64,000 nt of DNA, from NCBI RefSeq assembly GCF_008806975.1, contig NZ_CP031728.1, positions 2,604,001-2,668,000 on the forward strand, in the 5' to 3' direction. Both the position numbers and the translations under genes were made by a program. Below, one piece after another: positions 16,539-60,088 of the stretch. The notes under the pieces are model-generated. The model worked only from the letters and a program-made list of their open reading frames with translations. It did not search any database and was not told the DNA's origin. The stretch comes from Cellvibrio sp. KY-GH-1. Lineage in GTDB: Bacteria > Pseudomonadota > Gammaproteobacteria > Pseudomonadales > Cellvibrionaceae. Each line of letters begins with the position of its first letter. The first letter of the stretch is position 1.

Positions 16539-17672
16539 TTAATGAACTTGTGAATTAACAGATGCTGCCGGAGCGGGAACACCAACCTGCAATGGGCTTT
16601 TTATGTATTTTTTTGCCATCGCTGAATCAGCAACCCAACGCACTGCGACACCGTTGGTATACCTTACATCTATCGCTTTTACATCCGTCCAAACACTGCT
16701 TAAGTGCGCATCATATACAGTAACAAATCTACGAATTTTTTCCATCACTTGATCGCGTCCAATTGCAATTTCTACGTGATTTTTTACCGTTAATCGCCAG
16801 GATTTTTTGTTATCACACTTTAATGCGAGCACATCCAATCCTCGCGAGCGCAAAAGTTGGGATAAATCCTGATATTGCTGCAAAATTTCAATCGCATCAG
16901 ATTCATTTCCCTGTAACCAAGGCAAACCCGAAAGTGGGCCAGCATCGTCAACACGAACAATTTCCCCGCGCTGATTTAAGAAACCATCGCCCCAACGAGC
17001 AATCGGCTTTTGTTCGATAATTTTCACTACCAGAGTGTCAGGCCAGCGACGATTCAGCATCACTTTTTCCACCCATGGGTCACTCAACAGCGCCTGTTTT
17101 AACCGCATCAAATCCAGCTGCAAAAAATCGCCGTCAATTTCGCCTCCAATTAACTCTGTTGCGCGCTGCTTGGAAATGAGATGGAACTCACCTTCGACCA
17201 CGACACTTTTAATTGGACGCTCGAATACTTTCGCAATTGGGCCGCTCGCCCAATACACAGCAGCCCCTAAAGCAACAACCATCACACCCGCCGCAAAACG
17301 ACGATTTAACCAGGAAAAATTCCAGGTAAATGCAGGCTTCAATCCTTTTCGCCCTGCGGCTGCATCAGCGCCCCGGCTTTTTCGTCCTTGTGGAGATGCT
17401 TTTGTATAACCGCGCTCCCTACGCGTAGCGGATTCCGTTCGCGCGACTGGCATATCACCTGCGCCATAGCGTGGTGATGGACTTTCCAGCAAAACATCTT
17501 TAACCACATGCGCTTCTGGTTGCTCATTTTTTTCATTCCGCTCGCTCACCGAAGCGCGAACATCATCGCGTGTAGCCGCTGCGCGACGACGCGATTGCCG
17601 CGGGTTTTCATCCATTAATGGATCCGCACCAATCCTTGGTTCAATACGCTCGCCCGGTTTGAAATCGCGCAT
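16539..17672 (-). CDS. ftsQ: Cell division protein FtsQ with a long N-terminal tail
   Basis: FtsQ is a bitopic protein that links early and late division proteins through FtsB and FtsL. A single membrane segment lies near residues 128-146 (AAGVMVVALGAAVYWA), followed by the POTRA domain (KSVVVEGEFHLISKQRATEL) and the FtsQ beta domain. The cytoplasmic tail of about 125 charged residues is much longer than the 20-40 residues usual in enterobacteria. The gene begins six bases after ddlB, so coupling is likely. Confidence 0.94.
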   Translation of the reverse strand: MRDFKPGERIEPRIGADPLMDENPRQSRRRAAATRDDVRASVSERNEKNEQPEAHVVKDVLLESPSPRYGAGDMPVARTESATRRERGYTKASPQGRKSRGADAAAGRKGLKPAFTWNFSWLNRRFAAGVMVVALGAAVYWASGPIAKVFERPIKSVVVEGEFHLISKQRATELIGGEIDGDFLQLDLMRLKQALLSDPWVEKVMLNRRWPDTLVVKIIEQKPIARWGDGFLNQRGEIVRVDDAGPLSGLPWLQGNESDAIEILQQYQDLSQLLRSRGLDVLALKCDNKKSWRLTVKNHVEIAIGRDQVMEKIRRFVTVYDAHLSSVWTDVKAIDVRYTNGVAVRWVADSAMAKKYIKSPLQVGVPAPAASVNSQVH

Positions 17673-17678
17673 GGCAAA

Positions 17679-18650
17679 TTACGCAGCTACCTTGAGGCTG
17701 GCGCGCAACACAGTCAGCACCAACTCAGCAAAAGTAAGATTCACCGCTTTTGCAGCCATAGGCACCAGACTGTGGCTAGTCATGCCCGGCGCCGTATTAA
17801 CTTCCAGCAAATAGAAATTTTGCTGCGCGTCAGCCATAACATCAACGCGCCCCCAGCCACGACAACCCAGCGCATTAAATGCATTAAGTGCAAGTTGTTT
17901 TAACTCTGCTTCTTTTTCTACCGATAGACCGCAAGGACACAAATAGCGCGTATCTTCAGCAATATATTTTGCGTCGTAATCGTAAAAACTGTGATGAGTC
18001 TCCAGTTTGATTGGTGGTAGCGCCTCGCCATCCAGAATCGCAACTGTGTATTCCGCGCCGACAATCAAGCGCTCGACCAGCACACTGCCCTGATATTTTG
18101 CAGCCATGTTGAACGCTGCTTCCAGCTCAGTAGCGGTTTTCACACGCGACATCCCAATACTTGAGCCCTCGTTAGCCGGTTTCACCATGGCTTCACCGCC
18201 CAGCTTTGCCAGCACAGCGACGAAATCGGAATCACGCACAAGTACCGCAAATTCCGGTGTTGGCAATTTGAACGAGCTATTCGCACTCAAACCGGTCCAC
18301 AAATATTTGGTGCGCAACTTGTCCATCGCCAATGCAGAGGACTGCACGTCACTACCGGTATATGGAATATTTAAAAACTCCAGCAATGCTTGGATTCGAC
18401 CATCCTCTCCACCGGGGCCATGCAATATCAAAAATGCCCGATCAATCTTTGCTGCCTGAATATCGGCGATAATATTTTCGCTTACGTCTATCGCAACATG
18501 GTCGATACCTGCCTCTTGCAATGCAGCAATCACCGCTGCACCACTTTGCAAGGAAACCTCGCGCTCGGAAGACAGCCCGCCGTAGAGCACACCGACTCGA
18601 CCGATTTGTTGTTTCAGTACCGGATCAACCGGCAGTTTTACTGCTTGCAT
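17679..18650 (-). CDS. ddlB: D-alanine--D-alanine ligase
   Basis: This ATP-grasp enzyme joins two D-Ala for the peptidoglycan stem peptide. Conserved features include GVLYGGLSSEREVSL near the N-terminus, the HGPGGEDGRIQ loop, KPANEGSSIGMS and the C-terminal EVNTAPGMTSHS. The 323-residue length is typical. It is placed between murC and ftsQ, the standard dcw order. Confidence 0.96.
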   Translation of the reverse strand: MQAVKLPVDPVLKQQIGRVGVLYGGLSSEREVSLQSGAAVIAALQEAGIDHVAIDVSENIIADIQAAKIDRAFLILHGPGGEDGRIQALLEFLNIPYTGSDVQSSALAMDKLRTKYLWTGLSANSSFKLPTPEFAVLVRDSDFVAVLAKLGGEAMVKPANEGSSIGMSRVKTATELEAAFNMAAKYQGSVLVERLIVGAEYTVAILDGEALPPIKLETHHSFYDYDAKYIAEDTRYLCPCGLSVEKEAELKQLALNAFNALGCRGWGRVDVMADAQQNFYLLEVNTAPGMTSHSLVPMAAKAVNLTFAELVLTVLRASLKVAA

Positions 18651-18679: not shown

Positions 18680-20116
18680 CTAACGCAATTGTCGTTTCGC
18701 TAATTCCGGTGAAAGCACACCGACATTGCCGGCGCCCTGAGTGATGACTATGTCACCCGCACGCACTAAATCTTTGATAATGGCAGGAACACCATCAACG
18801 GTTTCCACAAAAATGGGTTCGATCACGCCCCGCGCACGAATACTGCGACATAAATGACGACTATCTGCACCCGGAATCGCATCTTCACCTGCGCTATACA
18901 CTTCCAACAATACCAATGCGTCGACCGTTGACAACACTTCGACAAAATCTTCATAAAGATCGCGTGTGCGTGTGTATCTGTGCGGTTGGTAAATCATGAC
19001 CAAACGACGATCCGGCCAACCATCGCGCACGGCTTTAATAACCGCGGCAACTTCACGCGGGTGATGGCCGTAATCATCGACCAACATCGCATCGCCCGAG
19101 TCAATCGGGAAATTGCCATACACCTGGAAGCGACGCCCCACCCCCTGGAAGTTTTCCAGGCCATGCTGAATAGCGACGTCGCTAATGCCTTCATCCGTTG
19201 CAACAGCAATCACCGCCGTTGCATTAAGCACATTGTGGATACCAGGAATGTTGATGCGAACATGCAAGGGTTTATCGAAGCCGGGGCGAACTACATCAAA
19301 CTCGGAGTGCATTTTGTCCTGCTTGATATTGATCGCACGGAAATCGCAATGATCACCAAAACCGTAAGTTAAAATTGGCCGGGCGATTTCAGGAATAATA
19401 TCGCGAATCACAGGATCTTCACCGCACAGCACCGCCAACCCATAAAAGGGCAAATTGTGAAGAAACTCGATAAAGGTTTTTTTCAGTTTGGAAAAATCAC
19501 CACCATAGGTTTCCATATGGTCGGCGTCGATATTGGTAACAATCGCCACCATCGGCTGCAGGTGTAAAAAAGATGCATCACTTTCATCCGCTTCTGCCAC
19601 CAAATAACGGCTCGCACCCAATTGCGCATTGGTACCTGTGCTATTTACCAAACCACCAATAACAAAAGTAGGATCAAGGTTGGCAGCGGCAAGAATAGAT
19701 GCAAGCAAGCTGGTTGTTGTGGTTTTACCGTGGGTACCAGCCACAGCAATACCGTGACGATAACGCATTAACTCACCGAGCATTTCAGCGCGACGCACAA
19801 TCGGGATACGCATTTCTCGCGCACCCAACATTTCCGGGTTTTGCGTATTAACCGCACTGGAATTAACAACCACATCCGAACCGTAAACATTTTCAGCAGC
19901 GTGGCCAATAAAAATCTGCGCGCCTTTATTTTTTAAACGCTCAGTCACACTGGATGCTTTGATATCCGAACCGGAAATCTCATAACCCTGATTCAATAAC
20001 ACCTCAGCGATACCGCTCATGCCGGCACCACCAATACCAATAAAATGAATGCGACGGATGCGGCGCATTTCCGGTACGCAAAACTGGCCGATGGATTTCT
20101 GCGCAGAATTATCCAC
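18680..20116 (-). CDS. murC: UDP-N-acetylmuramate--L-alanine ligase MurC
   Basis: MurC adds L-Ala to UDP-MurNAc. The N-terminal [14 protein letters not shown] nucleotide fold and the P-loop [10 protein letters not shown] are clear. I place the start at GTG 20116 because AGGAGG lies exactly six bases before it, inside the end of murG; the frame is open to 20158 but without such a signal. The GTG overlaps the last eight bases of murG, indicating translational coupling. Length is 478 residues. Confidence 0.96.
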
Positions 20117-30154: not shown

Positions 30155-31084
30155 CTATAATTTTTCCGCTACACGCATGACCGCACTGCGCGAACGAACA
30201 TTGATACTCACCTCTTCGTCGCTCGCTTTAATCGCTTTGCCCAGCGAGCGCATACGTTTATTTAATTGGTCATCGCGAATCGGCAGCCCTTTAGGAACCG
30301 GATCGCCTTGCTCCTGGCGACGAATAAATCGCTTAACTTCCCTGTCTTCCAGAGAATGGAAGCTGATCACTACCAAACGACCGCCAGGAGCCAATACTTC
30401 AAGCGCTTGCTCCAACACTGAATCCAGATCGCCCAACTCGTTGTTCACTTGAATTCGAATTGCCTGAAACGCACGTGTTGCGGGATGCTTGCCTTTTTCC
30501 CAAGCAGGATTCGCCTCTTTAATCACTTCTGCCAAATGTTTGGTGCGCGTAAATGGCTTTTTTTGACGTTCGGTGACAATTGCGCGCGCCATACGTTTTG
30601 CGAAACGCTCTTCACCATATTCCTTTAATACCCAGGTGATATCTTCTTCACTCGCAGTGTTTACCCAGTCCGCTGCACTCTGGCCGCAGGTTTGATCCAT
30701 ACGCATATCGAGCGGACCGTCCTGCATAAAACTAAAGCCGCGCTCCGCTTCATCCAGTTGCGGGGACGACACCCCCAGATCCAGCAATACCCCCGTCACT
30801 TTTCCCATCAAGCCACGAGCGGCGACCAAACTAGCAAGCTCAGCGAAGGAACCGTGCGCAATCGCAAAACGACTGTCATTGCCGAAACGGGAATTAGCAG
30901 TCGCAATGGCGGCCAGGTCTTTATCAATTCCCAGTAACTGGCCACCCGTTGCGAGCGTTTGCAGAATCAAACTGCTGTGACCACCACGCCCGAAAGTGCC
31001 ATCCACGTAAAAACCGGAAGTATCCGTAACCAGCGCCTCTACCGCCTCGTTCAAGAGCACGGTGATATGTTGTGAGTCAGTCAC
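30155..31084 (-). CDS. rsmH: 16S rRNA (cytosine-1402-N4)-methyltransferase RsmH
   Basis: RsmH methylates C1402 of 16S rRNA using S-adenosylmethionine; its partner for the 2'-O position, RsmI, is encoded at 47548-48402. The N-terminal [13 protein letters not shown], the SAM-binding [12 protein letters not shown] and the [11 protein letters not shown] motif are all family hallmarks. The 309-residue length is normal. It starts eight bases after mraZ. Confidence 0.97.
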
Positions 31085-31092
31085 ACGGTTAC

Positions 31093-31533
31093 CTAGAAAG
31101 AAAGATTTTGTAATTCGGCTGGCATATCGCCATCAGCAGCTTGGTCCATCAGGGCATTCCAACTGTCTTCGTTCCACAGTTCCAACTTATTGCCCAAACC
31201 AACCAACATCAGCTTTTTGTCCAGATGCGCGAAGTCGCGCAGTGTGGGGGGCACAAGAACACGGCCATTCGCATCCAATTCCAGATTCACTGCCTGGCCC
31301 ATAAACCGGCGCTGGATTTTGCGAACCTGCTCGTTGCCCGCAGGTAGTGCCTGAACTTTGGCCAGAACTGGCTCCCATTCAGGCTCGGAGTAAATGAGTA
31401 AACAGCGTTCATACATGTGGGCAGTCACCCAAATCCGGCCAGCACTGGACTCGACCAGCGCATCGCGAATGCGCGCCGGTACGGCCATGCGACCTTTTGG
31501 GTCCATGCTGATGGAATGACTACCTGTAAACAC
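31093..31533 (-). CDS. mraZ: Transcriptional repressor MraZ
   Basis: MraZ is the first gene of the division cluster, a ring-forming AbrB-like DNA-binding protein that represses its own operon in E. coli. Two SpoVT/AbrB-like halves are visible ([18 protein letters not shown] and [18 protein letters not shown]). The 146-residue length is standard. Four MraZ-type boxes lie just upstream at 31559-31593, supporting autoregulation. Confidence 0.96.
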
Positions 31534-31558
31534 TTTTCACCACTTGAGGGGTTTTAAT

Positions 31559-31593
31559 TCCACAAAAATCCACAATTACCCACTTTTTCCCAC
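31559..31593 (-). promoter_or_regulatory. MraZ operator: four boxes at 10 bp spacing
   Basis: On minus, GTGGG, GTGGG, GTGGA and GTGGA occur at exactly ten-base intervals (plus-strand positions 31589-31593, 31579-31583, 31569-31573 and 31559-31563). MraZ is known to bind tandem TGGGN repeats with this periodicity. The boxes begin at the predicted transcription start, so binding would block initiation. Confidence 0.85.
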
Positions 31594-31600
31594 GACGCTC

Positions 31601-31628
31601 ACTATAAGTCGGGGGTGAGTAAAGTCAA
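31601..31628 (-). promoter_or_regulatory. Sigma70 promoter of the mraZ-dcw cluster
   Basis: On minus, the -35 box TTGACT (31628-31623) is followed by a 16-base spacer and the -10 box TATAGT (31606-31601). Transcription would begin near 31594, directly at the MraZ boxes. Confidence 0.8.
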
Positions 31629-31763
31629 GGGAAGCGGCGCGAAAATACGCGCGATTTCACGGGAAAAATCAGGAAATATCGGCAAACAAGACGGGAAACA
31701 GCAGGATTCAGGCAGCACAAAAATCAACTTAAACAACAAAATCAAAGCAATAGAATGCAAACC

Positions 31764-31778
31764 TAATGTAATACATTA
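31764..31778. repeat. 15 bp palindrome in the mraZ-attL spacer
   Basis: TAATGTA, a central A and TACATTA form a perfect inverted repeat of operator size. No gene is obviously controlled by it. Before the island inserted, this DNA would have lain downstream of rnpB. It is recorded as an unexplained element; the surrounding spacer 31640-31894 holds nothing else I can identify. Confidence 0.4.
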
Positions 31779-31894
31779 AGTTTCAAATTATTTTGCAGTG
31801 AAAAATCAGGATTTATAGAAGGATTCGGTCTATATCGACCTTGATAAAACGCGGAAACCACAATAAACAACACAAACACACCACAGAAAATAAA

Positions 31895-31915
31895 TCGGAG
31901 TCAGCCTGTAAGCCG
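31895..31915. repeat. attL: duplicated rnpB 3' end (island left boundary)
   Basis: These 21 bases are identical to 40319-40339, which form the 3' end of rnpB including the strand that closes helix P1. The copy here is not attached to any rnpB body, as expected for the far attachment site left when a tyrosine integrase inserts into the 3' end of a gene. It marks the left limit of an 8.4 kb element. Confidence 0.88.
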
Positions 31916-31964
31916 ATAGGGGCACCGATATTTCAAGGGGTGCAGGCTACCCTAGCGGGAGTTT

Positions 31965-31984
31965 TGTAGCAATAGCTGTAGCAA
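31965..31984. repeat. Candidate integrase arm sites, left end
   Basis: TGTAGCAA occurs at 31965-31972 and 31977-31984, exactly 12 bases apart and about 50 bases inside attL. The same box at the same 12-base period is found three times at the integrase end (40238-40268). Shared short direct repeats near both att sites are typical of arm-type integrase binding sites. Confidence 0.65.
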
Positions 31985-32081
31985 TCCCTGTGCGCCTCAG
32001 ACGGAGCGCTAAGCACAGATAAGCAACCCCGCCCCCATTACGCCGCTTTTTTAAAATATCCATTGAACAAAAGAGCAAATA

Positions 32082-32106
32082 AAAAGGGGGCTTAGCACCC
32101 CCTTTT
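32082..32106 (-). terminator. Terminator after the small basic protein gene
   Basis: On minus, AAAAGGGGG and CCCCCTTTTT pair around a seven-base loop, 17 bases after the stop of the 45-residue gene. The hairpin is nearly symmetrical and could also act on plus. Confidence 0.8.
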
Positions 32107-32122
32107 CGCTTTCATAAACTAA

Positions 32123-32260
32123 CTACTTCTTCTTCGGTCGCGCCTGAGTCAAAGCACTGCCCGCCACACTTTTCTGGGCGGATGTTGACTTAGGGTTAGC
32201 CAAGATTTTTGCTGCTTTACTAGCAACCGACTTGGAAGTGTACTCATGCTTACTAGACAT
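32123..32260 (-). CDS. Small basic Ser/Ala/Lys-rich protein (45 aa)
   Basis: ATG 32258-32260 is preceded by AGAGG at nine bases and the frame ends at TAG 32123-32125, followed by a strong terminator, so this is a complete small gene. The product starts MSSKHEYTSKSVASKAAKIL and ends in ARPKKK; it has no cysteines or membrane segment and is probably a cytoplasmic helical protein. Similar small proteins with K.S.A.A..L patterns occur as unannotated genes in gammaproteobacterial mobile elements, but I know of no function. It lies just inside the left end of the island. Confidence 0.75.
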   Translation of the reverse strand: MSSKHEYTSKSVASKAAKILANPKSTSAQKSVAGSALTQARPKKK

Positions 32261-32277
32261 GGCTTAAAACCTCTTAT

Positions 32278-32422
32278 TTGACATGGCATTGCAAAGGCAG
32301 CGCAGTTTTGCAAGAATCATGTCTGATCACGAAAACCCTCTGCCAATCAGCAGAGGGCGCGTTGAAATGTGATCTAGATAAAAACGGTGAACATCTCTTG
32401 GTCGGGGCGTTCGCCGTTTTTT
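32278..32422 (+). ncRNA. Candidate structured small RNA with terminator
   Basis: TTGACA at 32278-32283 could serve as a -35 box, though no good -10 is visible. Downstream, GATCAC (32325-32330) pairs with GTGATC (32369-32374) around a perfect 8 bp hairpin (CCCTCTGC and GCAGAGGG, 32336-32357). A strong terminator follows: a 12-base arm at 32381-32392 and its near-complement at 32409-32420 (one G-T pair), then a run of T. The terminator has no plus-strand protein gene before it, which suggests an RNA product. No known family is recognised. Confidence 0.4.
32381..32422 (+). terminator. Rho-independent terminator
   Basis: AAAACGGTGAAC and GTTCGCCGTTTT form a long stem with one G-T pair, followed by eight T in total. 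It ends whatever plus-strand transcript crosses this region. Confidence 0.75.
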
Positions 32423-32578
32423 TTGGGCTAGGGCTGCTAGATCAGCCTCACCATCTTCTCATCCTAAATCCCCCAAGTCGATAAAACGATCAAACACAAC
32501 ATGATGTGTTTTTTGTTCGGAAAACCTCAATGGGAAGCAAGATAATGCGGTTATGAGTTTTGTGCAAGCTTGAAAAGC

Positions 32579-32660
32579 TGTGGATAACCATGAAGTTCAG
32601 CCTTCAGCCCGCTTAGAAAAAAAACAGCAACTGGATAAACATACAAAAGCCTGTGGATAA
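32579..32660 (-). other. Two perfect DnaA-box sequences
   Basis: TGTGGATAA, the complement of the DnaA box TTATCCACA, occurs at 32579-32587 and 32652-32660, with a weaker CTGGATAA between them near 32631. An AT-rich tract follows. Two boxes could arise by chance in AT-rich DNA, or belong to a replication origin of the element. Confidence 0.35.
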
Positions 32661-32791
32661 AGCTGTTATCACACTGATAAAGATGGAAAACGTTTTATTA
32701 TTATTGTGCATAAAAAGTGTATAACATGTTAAAAACAACGGTATTACTATATCCTCTCACCGTTTAGATCTTTTTTTCATTACAAACACCA

Positions 32792-33367
32792 TTAATATTC
32801 CTTTATTTTCCAGTGCCGCTTTACAGTCGGCAAGCTAATACCCAGCTTCGCCGCCACTTGCGATTGACTAAACTTCTGCTCTTTCAACTCTTGAACGCTA
32901 GCTCTTGTCTCAATGGCCACAGGCCGCCCCAGCTTCGTACCATCCGCTTTGGCCCTTGCTAAGCCAGATTGAGTGCGCTCTATCAGCAAATCACGTTCAA
33001 ATTCTGCTACAGCACTTATGACCTGCATTGTCATCTTTCCGGCTGGACTGGTGAGGTCAACACCCCCAAGTGCCAGACAGTGAACTCGAATACCTTTGCC
33101 TGCTAAATCCTCGACCGTCGAACGAACATCCATCGCGTTACGCCCCAACCTATCCAACTTGGTCACGACAAGCACATCACCACTCTCCAGTCGCTCTATA
33201 AGTCGATTCCAGCCCTTTCGCTGCTTGGCCTCCACCGAACCAGATATAACCTCCTCAATCGCTCTATGGGCTTCTACAGCAAAGCCAGCGGCTGTTATCT
33301 CATGTAATTGATTAGCAGTTGTTTGATCTGCTGTACTCACGCGGCAGTATGCGAAAACTCGACCCAT
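32792..33367 (-). CDS. Serine recombinase (resolvase/invertase family)
   Basis: This is a 191-residue small serine recombinase. The catalytic N-terminus reads [14 protein letters not shown], with the nucleophile serine in CRVS. The conserved region [12 protein letters not shown] is followed by the long E helix and a C-terminal Hin-type helix-turn-helix ([20 protein letters not shown]). ATG 33367 has a GAGGGG site six bases upstream; the frame is open 14 codons further. It has no close partner transposase, so it may resolve dimers of the element, invert a segment, or have come from a Tn3-type transposon. A large inverted repeat lies right before it. Confidence 0.92.
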
Positions 33368-33379
33368 GATTAACCCCTC

Positions 33380-33455
33380 TTTTGGTATCAAAAAACCTAG
33401 AGGTATCATATCAAGAGTATCGAAAAATTAAAAGGCTATTTTTTTGATACCAAAA
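33380..33455. repeat. 16 bp inverted repeat with GATACC boxes, candidate res site or operator
   Basis: Positions 33380-33395 (TTTTGGTATCAAAAAA) and 33440-33455 are perfect reverse complements separated by 44 bases. Further GGTATC/GATACC-like copies lie at about 33402, 33414, 33469 and 33495. They lie just upstream of the serine recombinase start, where its recombination site or an operator for the recombinase or the XRE regulator would be expected. Confidence 0.6.
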
Positions 33456-33499
33456 TAACGCAAATTTGGCCGGTATCGGCAACCGTTCGATTGTTGATA

Positions 33500-33718
33500 C
33501 TAGAGATCATCGAACAGGTCTTTTAAGGGAACATTAAGTGCGTCAGCAAGTGTTTTGATGGCATCAAGGCTTGGGTTTGCCCCACCCGTTTCGAGCCGTG
33601 ACATGTAGGTTCTGGCAAAGCCACAATGATCCGCAAAAGCTTCCTGAGTCATGCCGGAGGCAAGACGAAGCTCTCTAACGCGAGTACCAAATGCTTTGCG
33701 AATGGATTGATTGGGCAT
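33500..33718 (-). CDS. XRE-family transcriptional regulator
   Basis: A 72-residue single-domain helix-turn-helix protein with the XRE/Cro pattern: RVRELRLASGMTQEAFADHCG then ARTYMSRLETGGANPSLDAIKTLADAL. The size and layout match restriction-modification C proteins and small phage-type regulators, but no restriction or methylase gene is nearby. It is divergent from the exported-protein gene at 33797, with tandem operator-like repeats in between, so it probably controls itself and the cargo genes. Confidence 0.9.
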   Translation of the reverse strand: MPNQSIRKAFGTRVRELRLASGMTQEAFADHCGFARTYMSRLETGGANPSLDAIKTLADALNVPLKDLFDDL

Positions 33719-33742
33719 TTGCCCATGCTGGGCTTATGTGCT

Positions 33743-33767
33743 CTAATCGTGAACACACTAATCGTGA
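33743..33767. promoter_or_regulatory. Tandem 10 bp operator-like repeat
   Basis: CTAATCGTGA occurs at 33743-33752 and 33758-33767, 15 bases apart, between the divergent XRE gene and the exported-protein gene. A -10-like TATAAC follows at 33776-33781 on plus without a good -35, so the repeats overlap the -35 region and could be the XRE protein's binding site. Confidence 0.55.
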
Positions 33768-33796
33768 CATTGAGATATAACAACAAGGAGCACTTC

Positions 33797-34291
33797 ATGA
33801 AAATAACCACTATCTGCAAAGTAATAGTCTTGGGCACCCTAAGCTGCACAACGTATGCATCCAACCTAACAAAAAGTTCACCACAGCAAGCATGCAACGC
33901 AATGGCGAAGGTGGGACTAATCACCAACGGCTGGAAAAACAGATATGAAGACTCTTACGGATGCTCAAGCCCCTACAAAGATATTGGCAATGCATACCCC
34001 CTGCCGAACAACCTCGCCTTTTATGCCGAAGGTAACAGCTCAAAAGTAGACAAAGTAAAAATCGTCCTTAACTTTAACGACACAAGCAACACAAAAAATG
34101 CCTATGCAGAGCTTCAAAAGGCTGCTGCATTACTTGTAACTGAATTTACTGGCTCCGCGATTACTCAGGCATTAAAAACAGCGATAGCATCAAGATCTAA
34201 TATTTCTACCACGATCAATAACGCATCCGTGACCGTTGAAAAAATTGACTGGCCTAGTGGCGGTTATGAGATACAAGTAATTATTCACTGA
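33797..34291 (+). CDS. Exported protein of unknown function (island cargo)
   Basis: ATG 33797 follows a perfect AAGGAG at six bases, so the frame's extension back to 33626 is not used. The 164-residue product begins with a signal peptide (MKITTICKVIVLGTLSCTTYA, cleavage expected after TYA), leaving about 143 residues with Cys at mature positions that could form disulfides, including the QQACNAMAK and YGCSSPY segments. No family is recognised. The mature part has a mixed alpha/beta look with a helical stretch near residues 105-140. It shares the plus strand with the membrane protein gene 39 bases on, so the two may form one cargo operon. Confidence 0.8.
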   Translation: MKITTICKVIVLGTLSCTTYASNLTKSSPQQACNAMAKVGLITNGWKNRYEDSYGCSSPYKDIGNAYPLPNNLAFYAEGNSSKVDKVKIVLNFNDTSNTKNAYAELQKAAALLVTEFTGSAITQALKTAIASRSNISTTINNASVTVEKIDWPSGGYEIQVIIH

Positions 34292-34330
34292 CACACCTAG
34301 TATTTAGAATTCAAGGGGATACCACCAATT

Positions 34331-35296
34331 ATGGAGCTTATTAAAAAATTATTGCTTTGGCTGGTCGGCATATTTTTCGTGATAACCGGCATATCGCTTT
34401 TCACACTGTCATACAAAGCAGCTATCAGTGTTATTTTAGCCAGTCTATTTTTAATACCAGCTTCAACGGAATTCTTTTACAAAAAAACAACAATTTCTAT
34501 AAAGCCGAAAATTAAATTCTTAATAGTATCTGGTCTCCTTATTTCCGCCCCTATACTCGTCAACCAAGAAGAGAAAGAGCGAGACAATGCAATAGCTGCT
34601 GCCCAAGCAGAAGCAGAAGCAAAGAGAAAAGAAGCCCAAGAAATGCAATCAATAAATGCAATAAAAAAGCACTTTTTTGAAAACAAAGAATCCGTAATAA
34701 GCTCTTTAAAGAGTGATTTTGAAAATAAAAACTATGAAGCAGCAATCTCGAACGCCGAAAAGTATATGATTACTGGAAACACAGAGGTTATAGACATCTA
34801 CAAAAATGCGAAATCAGCATTAAACGCCATTCAGATAGAAAAAAGAACAAAAGAGCTACTGGAAAAAGCAAAGAAATTGCCAAGCTCCGAGACAGAAGAA
34901 AACAAAAACCTATATCAACAATTGGTCAGCATGAATCCTAACAACGAGAAATTTAAAGAAAAATTATCGTATTACGCAGACAAATTACAAAAAAAGCAAA
35001 AAGAAGAAAAAGAGAAAGCAGCAGCCAAACTGGAGCGAGAGGAAAAAATAAAGTCGCAGTTTCACCCTTGGGATGGCTCACACATCCAACTTGAAAGGAT
35101 GATCAAACAACAAATGAATGACCCAAACAGCTACGAGCATGTAGAGACCGTCTATTGGGATAACGATGCTATCGACTCACTAATTGTTCAAACCACTTTT
35201 AGAGGAAAGAATGCATTTGGGGGAGTGGTAAAAAATTTCGTTAAGGTCAGAGTTAATTTAAATGGCGATATTATTGAAGTGATAGACCAATCATAA
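34331..35296 (+). CDS. Membrane protein with coiled-coil and C-terminal globular domain (island cargo)
   Basis: The 321-residue product has three hydrophobic segments in the first 75 residues (for example LLLWLVGIFFVITGI and FLIVSGLLISAPIL), then a long Glu/Lys/Ala-rich coiled-coil with TPR-like spacing (about 80-235), then a C-terminal globular region of about 75 residues around HPWDGSHIQLERMIKQQM. No family is recognised. AGGGGAT lies 11 bases before the ATG. The gene is AT-rich compared with the backbone, consistent with transfer. An anchoring or sensing role is only a guess from topology. Confidence 0.78.
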   Translation: MELIKKLLLWLVGIFFVITGISLFTLSYKAAISVILASLFLIPASTEFFYKKTTISIKPKIKFLIVSGLLISAPILVNQEEKERDNAIAAAQAEAEAKRKEAQEMQSINAIKKHFFENKESVISSLKSDFENKNYEAAISNAEKYMITGNTEVIDIYKNAKSALNAIQIEKRTKELLEKAKKLPSSETEENKNLYQQLVSMNPNNEKFKEKLSYYADKLQKKQKEEKEKAAAKLEREEKIKSQFHPWDGSHIQLERMIKQQMNDPNSYEHVETVYWDNDAIDSLIVQTTFRGKNAFGGVVKNFVKVRVNLNGDIIEVIDQS

Positions 35297-35386
35297 AAGT
35301 TTCACACCCAGTAGAAACTGTTTAAATAGGAATCAGAACAATTCATACCGAACAACAAAGTCGCACCAAGACATTATAAGCAAAAA

Positions 35387-35401
35387 GGAGGCCGCAAGGC
35401 C
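35387..35401 (-). terminator. Left remnant of a terminator split by the IS
   Basis: GGAGGCC (35387-35393) plus GCAA and GGCC end at the IS border; the missing TCC is found after the IS at 36713-36715. Joined, they make GGAGGCC-GCAA-GGCCTCC, a 7 bp stem with a four-base loop that on minus is followed by TTTTTG. This would have been the terminator of the minus gene ending at 36743. Confidence 0.8.
35394..35401. repeat. IS target-site duplication, left copy
   Basis: GCAAGGCC, repeated at 36705-36712. The 8 bp length is normal for the IS256 family. Confidence 0.92.
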
Positions 35402-36704
35402 GAGACTGTAAATAAATCTGTGTAACTGTTTATCATTAACCTCATATAGGCAGGATAAACAGTATGAACAAAAAAGACCTTGAAGCCTTTGCGCGCGAAG
35501 CAGCAAAGCACATGAAGACTGAGAAAGACCTGAGCGACTTCAGTCAAATGCTCACCAAAATCACCGTTGAGGCAGCTCTCAACGGTGAACTTGATGCCCA
35601 TCTTGGCTACGAGAAACACCAAAAATCAGGTGCTGCCAATAGCCGCAACGGCTACACCACCAAAACCCTGAAAACGGAAGACGGTGAGATGGAGCTCAAA
35701 ACGCCGCGTGATCGCGAAGGCAGCTTTGAGCCGCAGTTGGTGAAGAAACACCAAACCCGCTTTACGTCGATGGATGACAAAATACTAAGCCTCTACGCCA
35801 AGGGCATGACCACCCGCGAAATCGTAGCCACTTTCAAGGACATGTATGGTGCAGACGTCTCTGCTACTCTTATTTCCAAAGTGACAGATGCTGTTATTGA
35901 GCAGGTCGTCGAATGGCAATCGCGCCCGCTGGATTCGGTTTATCCTATTGTTTATCTCGACTGCATCGTGGTAAAGATTCGCCAGGATAAGCAGGTTATC
36001 AACAAATCCATTTACCTTGCATTGGGCGTTACCATGGAGGGCCAGAAAGAATTATTAGGCATGTGGCTCTCGGAAAATGAAGGCTCAAAATTTTGGCTGG
36101 GCGTGCTGACGGAGCTACAGAATCGCGGTGTTCGAGACATTTTGATCGCATGCGTTGACGGGCTAAAAGGGTTTCCGGAGGCGATTAACGCGGCCTTTCC
36201 CGAAACGCAGATTCAACTGTGCATCGTACACATGGTACGCAACTCAGTGAAATACGTGCCGTGGAGGGACTACAAAGCCGTTACGGCAGACCTGAAGCGA
36301 ATTTACCAATCCATCACTGAAGAAGAGGCACTGCTGGCGCTCGCGCAGCTCGGTGCGCGCTGGGATGAAAAGTACCCGCAAATTAGTCGCTGCTGGCATA
36401 CCCATTGGGAAAATATACGCACCTTGTTTGCTTACCCTGAAGACATTCGTCGCGCAATTTACACCACCAACGCGATTGAATCGCTGAATAGCGTAATCCG
36501 TCAGGCAATCAAAAAGCGCAAATTATTTCCAACGGATGAATCAGCCAAGAAAGTGATTTTCTTGGCAATCCAGGATGCCTCCAAAAAATGGACTATGCCC
36601 ATTCGCAATTGGAGAGCAGCGCTCAATCATTTTATGATTGTGTTTGATGAGCGATTGATGGATTATCGTTGAGCTGGCAGTTACACAGAATTTTTTACAG
36701 GCTC
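35402..36704 (+). mobile_element. IS256-family insertion sequence, 1303 bp, complete
   Basis: Imperfect 27 bp terminal inverted repeats bound the element (35402-35428 starting GAGACTGTAAATAA; 36678-36704 reverse complement starting GAGCCTGTAAAAAA), both ending in TCTGTGTAACTG. One intact transposase fills the inside and an 8 bp GCAAGGCC duplication flanks it. Intact ends, intact gene and matching duplications suggest a recent insertion, here into a terminator hairpin. Confidence 0.96.
35464..36672 (+). CDS. IS256-family transposase
   Basis: This is a 402-residue DDE mutator-type transposase. The N-terminal region includes AALNGELDAHLGYEKH and SRNGYTTKTL, the typical start of the family. The catalytic region has YLDCIVVKIR (first Asp), ACVDGLKGFPEAI (second Asp) and YTTNAIESLNSVIRQA (Glu). 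No frameshift is seen, so it should be active. It lies within intact terminal repeats. Confidence 0.97.
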   Translation: MNKKDLEAFAREAAKHMKTEKDLSDFSQMLTKITVEAALNGELDAHLGYEKHQKSGAANSRNGYTTKTLKTEDGEMELKTPRDREGSFEPQLVKKHQTRFTSMDDKILSLYAKGMTTREIVATFKDMYGADVSATLISKVTDAVIEQVVEWQSRPLDSVYPIVYLDCIVVKIRQDKQVINKSIYLALGVTMEGQKELLGMWLSENEGSKFWLGVLTELQNRGVRDILIACVDGLKGFPEAINAAFPETQIQLCIVHMVRNSVKYVPWRDYKAVTADLKRIYQSITEEEALLALAQLGARWDEKYPQISRCWHTHWENIRTLFAYPEDIRRAIYTTNAIESLNSVIRQAIKKRKLFPTDESAKKVIFLAIQDASKKWTMPIRNWRAALNHFMIVFDERLMDYR

Positions 36705-36715
36705 GCAAGGCCTCC
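36705..36715. repeat. IS target-site duplication, right copy, and terminator remnant
   Basis: GCAAGGCC at 36705-36712 duplicates 35394-35401. The following TCC completes the hairpin arm that the insertion interrupted. Confidence 0.92.
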
Positions 36716-36742
36716 AAACACTCAAATGAACAAATACCTCAA

Positions 36743-37237
36743 TTATGAGTTGATTAACTTTCTTATTTCCTTAATGATCAACCCAGTAGATTTCTTAACC
36801 AAGCCAACTTTTTTAGATTTACGCCCACCACCCAGAGCATAAGCCCTAAAACTCTTTTTACTTGTCACCTCAACCCTAAAAGGAAATTGATTCTCACCCT
36901 CAATCTTCATTGACTGAAGGCGATCATTACGCATTTTTTTAAACTCAGCCCATGACAACGTGCAAAATCTTTTTTCTTTCCTGCAAAAACAAGCAACAAA
37001 AACATGATAGCTCAAAGAGAACTGATCATAAGTGTCAATCCACTCCTGGGTAGCCGTGAACTGACTGGCATTATCATGAAAAATATCAGTCGCCATTTTT
37101 ATTACTACCAGTATACGCTCATCTATTAGCACCGCACTGGAGCTGCCAATCGGATAGCTCACCCTACAACCTTCCATCAAAAATTGATGGCCAACAGTTG
37201 CAAGTAAATTAGTACTATTTGTTACATCTAAAATCAT
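36743..37237 (-). CDS. Hypothetical protein (island)
   Basis: ATG 37237 has AGGAA eight bases upstream and gives 164 residues starting MILDVTNSTNLLATVGH; a GTG at 37297 in the same frame would add 20 residues but lacks a ribosome site. The product is mixed alpha/beta with several Cys in the middle (CFCRKEKRFC) and a basic C-terminal third (GGGRKSKKVGLVKKS). No family is recognised. It lies directly downstream of the HUH-like protein gene, so it may act with it. Its terminator has been split by the IS. Confidence 0.7.
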   Translation of the reverse strand: MILDVTNSTNLLATVGHQFLMEGCRVSYPIGSSSAVLIDERILVVIKMATDIFHDNASQFTATQEWIDTYDQFSLSYHVFVACFCRKEKRFCTLSWAEFKKMRNDRLQSMKIEGENQFPFRVEVTSKKSFRAYALGGGRKSKKVGLVKKSTGLIIKEIRKLINS

Positions 37238-37371
37238 TAAAAAATTCCTATTTAAATATTCAAAGTTTTCCCTAAAAATCTCCAGACAATAGCTCACCTA
37301 TAGGCGAGATGATTGCTCATCGCTTAGTCAATTCATTTTTGTCAATTTGATTTTTCAGGAAGGATTAACGC

Positions 37372-38103
37372 TTACTGGCTCATTGACCAGAAGCGATTAC
37401 TGCTTACATCTTTCGTATCTATTTTGGCTAGATAACTCGCCCTGTACATGTAATCACCAAGTTCGCTTTCAGATATTAACGGCATCTCTTTCTTTTTCGA
37501 TTGCCAGTTCTCACTGAAGTGAAACCCAGGTCTTACAACCCCTTCATCAACATACGACTGCATCACCTTTCTTACTGCACTCCATGTAGCCTTGTGGCCA
37601 TCAAGAACCAACAGCATGTGATAATGCGGATAGGGTAAGGGGCACCCATCCTGATAGGCCGAGCGAAACACAGCCTTTTCATCTTTTGTAAGTGACTGCT
37701 CGTACTCAGGATCACTAGGGATTAGGTACTTTGTTTCACGCACCCACAAATACCGCAGCCTAAATACACTCGCTTTTTTTCGATTGACACCAACCTTTCT
37801 GAATTTATCTCGCAGCCGGTCAATGACATCGGAAATTTCGTAATCACTAAACTCGTCAGTAAAAGCAAAAGACAGCATAACCGCCTCCGGCCTCACCATA
37901 TTTGAATTGATCGCATCTACAGCTAACCGATAAATGCCATCCAAAATAGACTTGTAAAACGCTGTTACTTTATTTTTTTGTATTCGTGCTTGATCTAATA
38001 TCTTGTAACCCTTGAACTCATATCCTGAGTAAATTTTTCTAACACTTCCCATTACGAATTGATTTGTTACCCTCCTATATTTTTTTACACCCCTTACCAG
38101 CAC
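37372..38103 (-). CDS. YagK/YfjJ-like (inovirus Gp2-type) protein, candidate HUH replication initiator
   Basis: The 243-residue product contains PYPHYHMLLVLDG, an HxH motif in the context seen in the YagK/YfjJ C-terminal domain (PF11726), and a later YRASYLAK that resembles the YxxK tyrosine motif of HUH endonucleases. PF11726 proteins occur in inoviruses and satellites and are thought to act in replication. The start is uncertain: GTG 38103 gives the listed length; ATG 38052 lies 18 bases after a strong AGGAGG. The family assignment is from recalled motifs, so confidence is moderate. Confidence 0.6.
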   Translation of the reverse strand: MLVRGVKKYRRVTNQFVMGSVRKIYSGYEFKGYKILDQARIQKNKVTAFYKSILDGIYRLAVDAINSNMVRPEAVMLSFAFTDEFSDYEISDVIDRLRDKFRKVGVNRKKASVFRLRYLWVRETKYLIPSDPEYEQSLTKDEKAVFRSAYQDGCPLPYPHYHMLLVLDGHKATWSAVRKVMQSYVDEGVVRPGFHFSENWQSKKKEMPLISESELGDYMYRASYLAKIDTKDVSSNRFWSMSQ

Positions 38104-38565
38104 AACCTAAAGACTATTAACCTAACCCAAAGACAATAAAAACTCATCCAATAGCTAAAAAGCTTGGAGATAAGCAATCTACGAAAAGGGACTATTAGGA
38201 TTGGTGCGGGAAGGGAACCAATGTGGGACACTCGGCGAAAAAACGAGCATCCATTCAGATGCCGGAAGAATTTCCAGACTTAGCTGATTAGATGAAACTA
38301 CTTAAAAAAACTCTCATCCATTACTAATATTACCATAAGACATCCAAAAAAGTCAAGGCCGAGGATAGATAAAGCATTGACTTTTTTTAAATTTTATGCT
38401 CTTTTTTGCTCAAATTAAAAGATTAACTAAAGCCAAAATATCACTCCAGAGAAAAAATCCTTTTAAAAACATAGCGTTAAAAGTAATACACCTAACCATT
38501 AGATCCCACACAGAAATCCCAACACCCGATCCACTTTTTTGAATGCGAGAGTGGGAGGGGCTTAG
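38104..38565. other. 460 bp gene-free stretch before the integrase gene end
   Basis: No supported gene. It is AT-rich (38320-38480), with a small hairpin GCATC-CATTCA-GATGC near 38248. It could hold the promoter of the HUH-like gene (minus). On minus, a short stretch ends in CCCGCACCA, a tRNA-end-like sequence, but no tRNA fold is seen. Confidence 0.5.
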
Positions 38566-40257
38566 CTAAAGGTATGTAATTGATTCAACCACGGGCTGCA
38601 ATTTATCCACTGTGTAATGCCCCGTATACACGTCTGTCTGTCCAGCAGATGTTTTTTCATGACCGACAATTGCCTGCACCAAATCTATGGACTGACTTGC
38701 ACCTCTAGCTTCCGTAATAAACGAATGCCTGAAACTGTGAAAGGTACGCGACTGATTTAAGTCATTCAGTTTAGGGATAGCTAATCCATTGACGAAAGAA
38801 GGGAACCAACTTGTGATCTTCCTAGCTTTACCAAAGTAATTTGCGAACAACCGCCCCTCACCATCAACACTACCTACAAACGCCTCAAAACCCAGCTCAA
38901 GAAGCTTAGAATGAATAGGAACCAATCGGTTGGCATTATCTGTTTTTAGAGCGCCCGCCTCAGATGTGATTCGCAGATATTTAATACCAGTCTCTAAATC
39001 GACCTTTATGTCTTCTCGTCTTAGTTGTGTAATCTCACCTAACCTAGCGCCGGTATAAGCCCCCAAAAGCACAATCCATTTTCGCTCTTCATGCTTGCCG
39101 TTGAGAGCATTAGCTGCTCGCAATAATATTCTCACTTCTGAATTACTGAATGGCGCCTTCACCTTAGGCACCTTAATACCAAGATTCAAATCTACCGCTG
39201 GCGATTGTTGGATATATTCCTGCTCTTTTGCATAAGCAAAAATTCCCTGTAAAAGCTTCTTGTAGTTCTCTACCGATTTTGCTGCAAGCCTGTGATTTTC
39301 GGGTATATCTAAAGCTGCAATCTCAGCTACAGACTTCCCTCTGTATGGCTTTAAAGTCCTTTTGGGAAACTTTAAACAAGCCTGCAAACAAGCCTTTACC
39401 TTCCTACCTGTAATATCAGCGATAGGCACATCACCAATAAAATGAAGCAGCACGGGAAAGTTAGTCTGGTAGTCTTTTTGCGCTCCCAGTGAGAGATCTT
39501 CATTAGAAATTTTATGAGCCAGAAATTCTTCAAAAACCGCTGAGAGTAAAGGGGACGGAAGAGCTATTGCCTGCTCTGAAACAGTATTTCGCTTTAAAAA
39601 TCTGGGTATAGGCAACTCTAAAAGGCTTGGTTCCAAATCCTTTCGAAAGGATTCGATATTGAAATATTGAACTTGAGTTAAGTCTTTTATGAAACGGTCA
39701 TACACGACCGGAGAATCACTGAATGCCTGCCCAACCATGTGTAGAGCACGAACAATCTCGTTACCTTGCAATTCTGGAATATTAGGGTAATCGCTAACCA
39801 TTTTTTCAACGGTATCGTAAATAGAAATGCCCTCTGCAAACTCTCCCAACCTATTGGTCAGCGATTTACGATAGGCCTCCATACCAGCTGTGAATAGTGC
39901 CCTATCCCACTCCGCATCAAGAAGTGAATCCGCTTTGTAAGGCTGTTCGCCAGCCATCAGCATTGAAAACAATTTGGGAGCATAGTCTTCGTAATACTGC
40001 AAACAGAACTCATCAATAGCGTCCTGCTCTTCCATTAAGCCATTATCGCACTTGGACTGAAGCTCAAGCTCCAACGCTTTAAATTTATCAACAGCCATGT
40101 AATAAGCTCCCGCTCTGGCTAATGCCTGAATTTTTGAAGTAGTGCGAAGGGATTTGATGATTTCCCGCTTACCAAGGACTTTTCTGATAGCAGGAGGGCA
40201 CACCCAGCGGAAATAGTAATAACCATTGGAGCGTTTTTGTAGCAGCGTTTGTAGCAT
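38566..40257 (-). CDS. int: Tyrosine site-specific integrase (DUF6538-type N-terminus)
   Basis: This is a 563-residue phage-type tyrosine recombinase. The N-terminus (RSNGYYYFRWVCPPAIRKVLGK) resembles the DUF6538 domain. A core-binding domain follows near 230-330 (LEFLAHKISNEDLS). The catalytic residues are ARLGE arginine, HSFRHSF (His and Arg), GHEKT histidine and the tyrosine in DVYTGHY. The frame is open to 40356, inside rnpB, but I start at ATG 40257: the earlier residues would be encoded by rnpB and the terminator. The first codons overlap three TGTAGCA boxes, so the integrase may repress itself. It adjoins rnpB, its target. Confidence 0.93.
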   Translation of the reverse strand: MLQTLLQKRSNGYYYFRWVCPPAIRKVLGKREIIKSLRTTSKIQALARAGAYYMAVDKFKALELELQSKCDNGLMEEQDAIDEFCLQYYEDYAPKLFSMLMAGEQPYKADSLLDAEWDRALFTAGMEAYRKSLTNRLGEFAEGISIYDTVEKMVSDYPNIPELQGNEIVRALHMVGQAFSDSPVVYDRFIKDLTQVQYFNIESFRKDLEPSLLELPIPRFLKRNTVSEQAIALPSPLLSAVFEEFLAHKISNEDLSLGAQKDYQTNFPVLLHFIGDVPIADITGRKVKACLQACLKFPKRTLKPYRGKSVAEIAALDIPENHRLAAKSVENYKKLLQGIFAYAKEQEYIQQSPAVDLNLGIKVPKVKAPFSNSEVRILLRAANALNGKHEERKWIVLLGAYTGARLGEITQLRREDIKVDLETGIKYLRITSEAGALKTDNANRLVPIHSKLLELGFEAFVGSVDGEGRLFANYFGKARKITSWFPSFVNGLAIPKLNDLNQSRTFHSFRHSFITEARGASQSIDLVQAIVGHEKTSAGQTDVYTGHYTVDKLQPVVESITYL

Positions 40258-40268
40258 TTTTTGTAGCA
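40238..40268. repeat. Candidate integrase arm sites, right end
   Basis: TGTAGCA occurs at 40238-40244, 40250-40256 and 40262-40268, each 12 bases apart, matching the pair near attL in sequence, spacing and orientation. They span the integrase start codon at 40257. Confidence 0.65.
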
Positions 40269-40276
40269 ACCTAAGC

Positions 40277-40296
40277 AAAAGGGGTGAAACACCCCC
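40277..40296 (-). terminator. Terminator for rnpB supplied by the island
   Basis: On minus, GGGGTG-TTT-CACCCC is followed by TTTTG. It lies about 25 bases past the rnpB 3' end and upstream of the integrase start, so the island carries a stop for rnpB transcription in place of the original downstream DNA. Confidence 0.65.
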
Positions 40297-40319
40297 AAAG
40301 CTCAGGCTTTTCAATACGT

Positions 40320-40701
<382 letters not shown>

Positions 40702-59188: not shown

Positions 59189-60088
59189 ATGGCTGCACGT
59201 AAACAAACCGCTGTTAATACTGTTGCAAGTTTGGAACAGCAATTAGCTCAACTGAAAGCGCAACTGGCAAAAGCTCGCGCAGCTCAAGCGGCAGATGCCG
59301 GTAAAGCTGTTGCTGGTTTGGCTAAAGACGCTGCTAAAGCTGCTGCAGCTCTGAAAGCTGCTCAAAGCAAGTTGGCTGCTGCTAGTAAAAAGAAAACCCC
59401 TGGTTCAGCTAAAGTTGTAGCCGCTGCTAAAGCTGCTGTTGCTGCCGCCAAGAAAGATGCCGCTGCTGCGAAAGCTGCCGTTGCTGCTGCCAAAAAAGAA
59501 GCTGCAGCTGCTAAAGCTGCTGCTAAATTGGCTGCTGCGCACGACAAAGCAGTTGCTAAAGCGGAAGGTGCAGTTGCAAAACGCTTGAAAGCTTCAGCTA
59601 AGAAAGCTGCAGTAAAAACCAAAGCTGCTGAGAAAAAGGCTGCTGCAAAAGCTAAAGTAGCGGCTAAAAAAGCTGCCGCTAAAGCAAAAGCTGCTGCTAA
59701 GAAGCAAGCAGTAAAAGCGAAAGCAGCTGCTAAAAAAGCGGCTTTGAAGAAAAAAGTTGCTGACAAGAAAGCTGCTGTTAAAGCGAAAGCAGCTGCCAAG
59801 AAAGCGGCTGTAAAAGCGAAAGCGGCGGCCAAGAAAACTGCAGCTAAAGCTAAAGCAGCAGCCAAGAAAACTGCCGCTAAAGCTAAAAAAGCTCCTGCTG
59901 TTAAAAAAGCAGTAGCCAAAAAGGCTCCAGCTGCTAAAAAAGCTCCTGCTGCTAAAAAAGCAGTAGCCAAAAAGGCTCCAGCTGCTAAAAAAGCTCCTGC
60001 TGCTAAAAAAGCAGTAGCTAAGAAGCCAGCGGGCGCTGCGCCTGCAAAACGCGGTCGCAAGCCAAAGGCTGCTGCACCAGCAGCGTAA
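59189..60088 (+). CDS. Histone H1-like / AlgP-like Lys-Ala-rich protein
   Basis: A 299-residue protein made almost wholly of Lys, Ala and Pro after a short N-terminal coiled-coil (VASLEQQLAQLKAQLAKAR, about residues 13-31). The tail repeats KAAAKK- and AAKKAPAAKK-type units, like eukaryotic H1 tails and Pseudomonas AlgP, and should bind DNA without sequence specificity. The C-terminus ends RGRKPKAAAPAA, an AT-hook-like element. Tandem DNA repeats inside it make length variation likely. AAAGGAAG lies eight bases before the ATG. Confidence 0.9.
   Translation: MAARKQTAVNTVASLEQQLAQLKAQLAKARAAQAADAGKAVAGLAKDAAKAAAALKAAQSKLAAASKKKTPGSAKVVAAAKAAVAAAKKDAAAAKAAVAAAKKEAAAAKAAAKLAAAHDKAVAKAEGAVAKRLKASAKKAAVKTKAAEKKAAAKAKVAAKKAAAKAKAAAKKQAVKAKAAAKKAALKKKVADKKAAVKAKAAAKKAAVKAKAAAKKTAAKAKAAAKKTAAKAKKAPAVKKAVAKKAPAAKKAPAAKKAVAKKAPAAKKAPAAKKAVAKKPAGAAPAKRGRKPKAAAPAA
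59903..60018. repeat. 51 bp tandem repeat inside the H1-like gene
   Basis: Two exact 51 bp copies (59903-59953 and 59954-60004) and a partial third (60005-60018) encode a 17-residue unit KKAVAKKAPAAKKAPAA. The in-frame repeat could expand or contract by slippage without breaking the frame. Confidence 0.9.

What the first reader, a model, noticed from the sequence alone, without database searches (positions are those of the whole stretch)
31895..40339. An integrated element uses the 3' end of rnpB as its attachment site
A perfect 21 bp direct repeat bounds 8.4 kb (about 7.1 kb without the IS). One copy is the rnpB 3' end including helix P1's closing strand; the other has no rnpB body. The tyrosine integrase gene abuts rnpB, the classic layout for integration into the end of an RNA gene. 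tRNA and tmRNA genes are common targets; I am not aware of rnpB being a common one. The ancestral order mraZ-rnpB-rsmI seen in pseudomonads supports the boundaries: mraZ and rnpB are adjacent once the element is removed.
Basis: partly seen in the sequence, partly recalled or inferred. Interest (0 to 1): 0.8.

Follow-up and report, generated by a model that had tools for sequence, protein, structure and literature searches.

The report
Mobile islands inserting into rnpB
A small mobile DNA island has slotted into the tail of the gene for the RNase P RNA without breaking it, and its integrase belongs to a distinct group whose members often sit beside this same gene in other bacteria, a target we did not find described.

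Summary
Window 31895-40339 is bounded by a perfect 21-bp repeat, one copy lying at the 3' end of rnpB. Three same-genus relatives give the empty site: mraZ spacer, one copy, rnpB. A fourth (G011) holds about 1 kb at the same site, apparently a deletion derivative of a related element, with both ends kept. The tyrosine integrase is directly downstream of rnpB on the same strand.

The finding is wider than one insertion. Of 80 loci encoding relatives of the integrase, 19 lie next to rnpB, all among the 20 listed first (the 20th cannot be read upstream). None of the other 60 does; 30 of them are directly downstream of a tRNA or tmRNA gene. The rnpB integrases come from many, nearly all gammaproteobacterial, families and share a fully supported clade with an enterobacterial branch, part of which uses the thiM TPP riboswitch, and one Photobacterium row with unresolved site. 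Eight delimited islands (4-10 kb) share rnpB-tail repeats; six have candidate arm-site motifs at both ends, seven a serine recombinase. Other cargo is largely unrelated, some resembling phage-defence genes.

Excision was not shown. Ten searches of an open-access library found no report of rnpB as attachment site, but key papers are not held.

The parts
40317..40699 (-). rnpB, RNase P RNA class A (target gene, kept complete)
   Evidence: RF00010 322.6 bits, model 1-367
40319..40339 (.). rnpB-side attachment repeat, at the 3' end of rnpB
   Evidence: exact 21-bp repeat
31895..31915 (.). far attachment repeat next to the mraZ spacer
   Evidence: exact 21-bp repeat; junction shown by empty sites
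40268..40308 (-). element-borne hairpin just after the rnpB 3' end, between rnpB and int
   Evidence: fold z -3.33; same structure in L008, related ones in L034 and L055
40238..40268 (-). three TGCTACA motifs at 12-bp spacing, candidate integrase arm-type sites, spanning the int start codon
31965..31983 (-). two TGCTACA motifs at 12-bp spacing near the far end, candidate arm-type sites
38566..40257 (-). tyrosine integrase, DUF6538 + Phage_integrase; catalytic residues of the family present
   Evidence: Pfam; invariant R404 K437 H506 R509 H532 Y543 in A1 (catalytic roles recalled)
37372..38052 (-). Rep-like protein (weak YagK_YfjJ_C and REP_ORF2-G2P matches, below cut-off), PHYH motif
36743..37297 (-). 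hypothetical protein, no Pfam or NCBIfam match
35401..36705 (+). IS256-family insertion sequence inside the element (transposase 35464-36672)
   Evidence: inverted repeats, NF033543
34331..35296 (+). hypothetical protein, no Pfam or NCBIfam match
33797..34291 (+). DUF6030 protein
33500..33718 (-). Xre-type helix-turn-helix regulator
32792..33367 (-). small serine recombinase (resolvase/invertase type), the second recombinase typical of these islands
   Evidence: PF00239 131 bits; blastp relatives in 6 of 7 other delimited islands
32123..32260 (-). 45-aa open frame near the far end
   Evidence: open frame only; no Pfam match

Best explanation
The 8.4-kb segment is a site-specific integrative island. 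Its DUF6538 tyrosine integrase recombines a copy of the rnpB 3' end carried on the circular element (attP) with the chromosomal rnpB 3' end (attB). The element brings an identical gene tail, so rnpB stays complete and the displaced tail marks the far end. Candidate arm-type sites are TGNTACA repeats, often 12 bp apart, near the ends. The element replaces the chromosomal 3' flank of rnpB with its own, usually holding a hairpin that probably ends or shapes the rnpB transcript and keeps it from expressing the downstream, co-oriented integrase. The integrase belongs to a clade that mostly targets rnpB. Shown here: repeats, empty sites, recurrence at rnpB, tree, motifs, hairpin enrichment. Inferred: integration by this enzyme, arm-site binding, hairpin role, excision.
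For: Repeats and gene. Empty sites in 3 relatives. Related 1-kb element with both ends at the same site in G011. 19 of 80 integrase-relative loci directly downstream of rnpB, all 19 among the first 20 listed, 0 of the other 60 adjacent; 30 of those 60 are directly downstream of a tRNA or tmRNA gene. In a draw of 293 order genomes the 5 with more than 300 bits are all at rnpB and none of the 25 other loci taken is; of the 5, one is the window's and two seem to be strains already in the 19, so two are new. Clade support 100/100. Distal copies of the rnpB tail in 7 of the 19. In L250 the displaced tail again lies by mraZ. Motif 26 in 3680 end positions against 14 in 56744 middle positions. Hairpins in 17 of 20 occupied sites against 16 of 47 unoccupied.
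Against: No excised circle or reads were available. The element carries an IS and is seen in one genome, so it may no longer be mobile. For 12 of the 19 rnpB loci no distal tail was found in the sequence held; genome-wide pattern searches for 7 of these 12 gave only one weak candidate, 18 kb from the rnpB of L063. Inside the clade, L075 (Photobacterium) and three enterobacterial rows (L077, L083, L098) sit at neither rnpB nor a TPP aptamer that we could find. The 60 and 19 loci are related by descent, so the Fisher value (1e-18) overstates independence. The arm motif was read off some of the ends in which it was then counted, and paired 12-bp spacing at both ends holds in only 3 of 8 islands. 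The hairpin control used 60 shuffles, the test set 200, and 3 of 20 sites lack it.
Confidence: 0.93

Rival explanations
1. The second 21-bp copy arose by local tandem duplication of the rnpB tail, later split by unrelated insertions; the integrase is incidental.
For: rnpB tails do occur in tandem: L043 (G030) has tail pieces about 73 bp apart.
Against: Three relatives have one copy at an intact mraZ-rnpB spacer; integrases of this clade recur at rnpB in many families; distal tail copies sit kilobases away in 7 other loci.
Confidence: 0.02
2. A prophage or phage satellite, now decayed, rather than a self-contained island.
For: Tyrosine integrase, Xre regulator and a protein weakly like YagK/YfjJ, which I recall from cryptic prophage islands; one enterobacterial sister island, L090, carries a protein with a near-cut-off capsid match.
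Against: No phage structural family among 8 window proteins in Pfam or NCBIfam (PHROGs not searched); none of 50,697 phage records holds the integrase at E 1e-20; 4-10 kb size.
Confidence: 0.2
3. An integrative plasmid-like element that replicates as a circle through its Rep-like protein and is spread by conjugation or transformation.
For: Rep-like protein with near-invariant PHYH (H160, H162) and Y220, Y224, K227 (likeness to HUH nucleases recalled), occurring with the integrase (equal contig lengths for P0003/P0040 and P0009/P0047).
Against: Family hits are below cut-off; no solved-structure match by sequence; no plasmid record encodes it at E 0.001; no blastp relative in the other seven delimited islands.
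Confidence: 0.4

Closest known systems
[quoted passage not shown]
   Same: Tyrosine integrase, 3' part of an RNA gene duplicated, gene restored, displaced fragment marks the endpoint (start of the abstract of PMC4383910 in the listing; passages).
   Different: Target is rnpB. PMC12424338 (passages) sorts sites into tRNA/tmRNA, protein-coding and intergenic, so rnpB sites would not form a class of their own there.
dusA-associated integrase family (PMC4482086, listing only)
   Same: One integrase family devoted to one conserved host gene across many bacteria.
   Different: Protein gene, 5' end; here the 3' end of a ribozyme gene.
DUF6538-type integrases at tRNA/tmRNA genes (outgroup)
   Same: The layout RNA gene then int on the same strand (30 of 60 loci).
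   Different: Separate clade with 100/100 support, different targets.
GInt islands (PMC5385486, listing only)
   Same: Mobile genomic islands defined by integrases.
   Different: Title names four genes essential for recombination; here one tyrosine and, in 7 of 8 islands, one small serine recombinase.

Membership tests
Site-specific integrative island in an RNA gene | Integrase gene inside the element, beside the target gene | tested here: met
Site-specific integrative island in an RNA gene | Direct repeats, one completing the target gene | tested here: met
Site-specific integrative island in an RNA gene | Empty site with one repeat copy in relatives | tested here: met
   L036, L037, L038
Site-specific integrative island in an RNA gene | Sporadic presence | tested here: met
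   full integrase only in G000 of 21 genus genomes
Site-specific integrative island in an RNA gene | Excision to a circle | not testable with these tools
   no reads or experiments
Tyrosine recombinase | Phage_integrase domain with catalytic R-K-H-R-H-Y set | tested here: met
   (roles of residues recalled)
Tyrosine recombinase with arm-type sites | Repeated arm sites inside both att ends, bound by the integrase | tested here: inconclusive
   motif at both ends in 6 of 8 islands; binding not tested
Integrative mobilizable or conjugative element | Relaxase or conjugation genes | tested here: inconclusive
   none at cut-off in 8 window proteins; Rep-like protein of uncertain fold
Prophage | Phage structural genes | tested here: not met
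   none in Pfam or NCBIfam for 8 window proteins; PHROGs not searched

The most novel reading that the evidence does not exclude
There is a clade of tyrosine integrases that specialises in structured non-tRNA RNAs: rnpB as its main home, mostly in Gammaproteobacteria, with a switch to the thiM TPP riboswitch in part of an enterobacterial branch. [quoted passage not shown]
Probability: 0.7. Interest if true: 0.72.

Novelty: new variant of a known kind. Interest (0 to 1): 0.62.

Why it matters
rnpB is essential (recalled) and single-copy here, so an integrase able to use it must keep the RNA working; the clade shows how such a target is exploited again and again. It gives a ready rule for finding islands that a tRNA/tmRNA, protein or intergenic sorting would not single out, a set of integrases with a near-universal landing site, and a test of whether islands alter the 3' ends of RNase P RNA transcripts.

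Tried and rejected
Chance repeat and tandem duplication of the rnpB tail: rejected. Viral contigs: 80 loci of integrase relatives kept, none with an rnpB hit in the scan. Plasmid records: two partial matches under 35% identity; phage records: none at E 1e-20. Crossover point inside the shared block: tried with G204 against its congener G265; not resolved, because the proximal copy of G204 differs by eight transversions that may be assembly errors. Far ends of the larger islands: not found for 12 of 19 loci, except one weak candidate (the first pattern missed the known far copy of L074 and was too strict). Class-wide draw of 369 genomes at E 1e-40: only G000 above 300 bits; the two weaker matches lie by tRNA genes. 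Site of L075: a 16-bp repeat 7.4 kb apart, no RNA found at it. Literature: 10 of 10 searches. Passages only were seen in PMC8776855, PMC2705793, PMC3541175, PMC5771137, PMC12884075, PMC12424338, PMC2864759, PMC2824730, PMC10383233, PMC10763512 and PMC4383910; none of these passages reports rnpB as an attachment site. The other papers listed were seen as listings only. Two likely sources (doi 10.1093/nar/gkaa156, PMC100330) are not held.

Full report
Check of the observation. The 21-bp exact repeat is at 31895-31915 and 40319-40339. The right copy lies at the 3' end of rnpB, 40317-40699 (-), matched over the whole class A model at 322.6 bits. About 0.0006 exact 21-bp direct pairs are expected in the window. 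No tRNA or tmRNA lies in the window. G000 has one rnpB.

Empty site. 55 of 57 genomes (the window's own among them) gave an rnpB match; the loci of 50 of the other 54 were taken. In L036, L037 and L038 (G010, G013, G014, same genus) one stretch aligns with window 30903-31915 at 89-90% identity and the next with 40319 onward at 84-87% (from 40313 in L036), the two overlapping over the 21 bp; mraZ follows as in the window. L024 (G007) has the same layout with a substituted tail. Joining the two window flanks gives a spacer that aligns with all three. Of 21 genus genomes only G000 has the full integrase; G011 has a 50-aa fragment and G014 a 28%-identical match over residues 239-559 elsewhere. The Rep-like protein is in G000 only. 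A 3.5-kb stretch of the element gave only short matches, 271 bp at most, in 13 of the other 20 genomes.

Second occupant. In G011 (L008) the same place holds about 1 kb: a tail copy at each end (20 of the 21 bp exact at the far end), the same hairpin and arm-like motifs, the first 50 integrase residues, 74 bp matching the resolvase 3' end at 86%, and a PaaA2/ParE-type toxin-antitoxin pair. G005 (L034) has the integrase start region next to rnpB with one arm-like motif, and G017 (L027) a similar sequence; no second tail was found in either.

A clade at rnpB. A protein search gave 17 integrases, the query included, at 350 bits or more, then a drop to 132 (only the 8000 best candidates were scored). 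A profile built from 30 rnpB sequences finds rnpB directly upstream of the integrase, on the same strand, in L055-L069 and L071-L074: 19 of 80, all among the first 20 listed. L070 begins at its contig end and cannot be read. None of the other 60 has rnpB adjacent; L116 has one about 8 kb away on the other strand. Of these 60, 33 hold a tRNA or tmRNA gene and in 30 it is on the same strand and ends within 100 bp of the integrase frame. The 19 are labelled Shewanella, Pseudoalteromonas, Colwellia, Marinobacterium, Marinomonas, Methylophaga, Alteromonadaceae, Saccharospirillaceae, Thiotrichaceae, Methylophilales and one MAG labelled Chlamydiia. In a draw of 293 genomes of the order, 32 have matches at E 1e-15; the five with more than 300 bits are at rnpB, and none of the 25 other loci taken (L220-L244) is. 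One of the five is the window's genome, and G204 and G230 share contig lengths with L072 and L067, which were in the query alignment; G101 and G309 are new.

Tree. In a careful tree of 51 of the 88 rows used before, 15 outgroup integrases (14 with a tRNA or tmRNA gene in the locus; none found for L106) separate from all 21 rnpB ones at 100/100 (the quick tree of 88 rows, gives the same split, 42 against 46). Inside the rnpB side lie L075 (Photobacterium, site unresolved) and a nine-row enterobacterial group (100/99). Of 20 enterobacterial loci checked, 12 have a TPP aptamer 3' half by the integrase start, and L092 has one further off; of the nine in the tree, four do (L078, L084, L090, L099), and the three-row branch L077, L083, L098 does not. 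Rfam confirms the aptamer in three of five enterobacterial loci given to it. In L089, L090 and L099 the aptamer or part of it is duplicated 7.6-10.4 kb away, and in L089 and L090 the far copy precedes a hydroxyethylthiazole kinase gene (thiM by name, recalled). So part of the group appears to have changed from rnpB to another structured RNA.

Anatomy. Seven of the 19 rnpB loci show a distal copy of the gene tail: L056 12 bp (weak), L057 21, L059 20, L066 17, L071 75, L072 60, L074 19, at 4.3-9.8 kb. Profile hits extend the L071 and L072 copies to 102 and 172 bp. In L250, on what seems the same contig as L072, the displaced tail is followed by mraZ. With the window this makes eight delimited islands. 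Seven of the eight carry a small serine recombinase by blastp, L071 being the exception (Pfam run on two); the rest of the cargo is largely unrelated. Of ten proteins given to PADLOC-DB, four matched: one in L057, two in L071, one in L074; the four window proteins did not. All eight islands have TGNTACA motifs at the integrase end, and six also at the far end: 26 in 3680 end positions against 14 in 56744 in the middle. Seven have a pair exactly 12 bp apart at one end at least, three at both. The motif was read off, so the p-value there is optimistic, but the same spacing with integrases only 28-58% identical to the window's is hard to explain otherwise.

3' flank. The sequence after rnpB folds better than shuffles (z -2.77 or lower) in 17 of 20 occupied sites; not included were L061, L064, L027 and the G101 and G309 loci. 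In 47 of the 51 loci L001-L051, the four with element remains left out, 16 reach -2.5; Fisher p 0.00015. The three empty relatives give -0.92, -1.40 and -0.77 against -3.33 in the window. Some hairpins follow rnpB at once, as terminators do; others pair with the integrase start region. I infer that they protect the integrase from expression by read-through from rnpB and may form the new 3' end.

How it probably works. Circular element, attP carrying the rnpB tail; the integrase recombines it with the chromosomal tail; rnpB is restored. Directionality factor and transfer route are unknown. The Rep-like protein suggests a replicating circle, but its fold could not be predicted and it has no solved relative by sequence.

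Novelty. Integration into RNA gene ends is known; rnpB as the home of a dedicated integrase clade was not found in ten library searches, which is weak evidence because key papers are not held.

Noticed in passing
L089 9345-9447 / 19782-19883; L090 9551-9628 / 18042-18119; L099 9654-9679 / 17250-17275: TPP riboswitch aptamer, or part of it, duplicated at both ends of enterobacterial islands, the far copy in front of a hydroxyethylthiazole kinase gene in L089 and L090; the integrase is directly downstream of a riboswitch.
   Followed up: partly
L008 485-1523: One-kb derivative with both att ends, a ParE-type toxin-antitoxin pair and only fragments of resolvase and integrase; possibly mobile in trans.
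   Followed up: partly
window 32521-32587: Up to 67 bp, 82-90% identical to a chromosomal segment in 12 of 20 genus relatives, ending in a TGTGGATAA box; in the three loci viewed it lies upstream of a gene I read as nrdA (name recalled, not searched).
   Followed up: partly
window 32123-32260; L090 17180-17428: Small proteins with a shared NP..S..KS.AGS.L.Q motif near the far ends of two distant islands; weak Con-6 similarity in L090 only.
   Followed up: partly
L250 13800-14150 and 5424-5595: The full-length rnpB of G204 differs from its displaced 3' copy by eight transversions, at most of which the displaced copy agrees with a congener; assembly error or a damaged RNA.
   Followed up: partly
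L248 12142-12192 and 13249-13371: Two displaced rnpB tails downstream of one rnpB in G101, one followed by what reads like a terminator hairpin; looks like stacked insertions.
   Followed up: partly
L247 1668-2318 and 5317-6729: Two integrase copies or remnants in tandem downstream of rnpB in G230.
   Followed up: no
L043, 54-200 bp downstream of rnpB: Tandem pieces of the rnpB tail about 73 bp apart.
   Followed up: no
window 59902-60018: Tandem repeat with a 51-bp period.
   Followed up: no
L055: Contig labelled Chlamydiia carries an rnpB and an integrase that group with the proteobacterial ones; perhaps misbinned.
   Followed up: no
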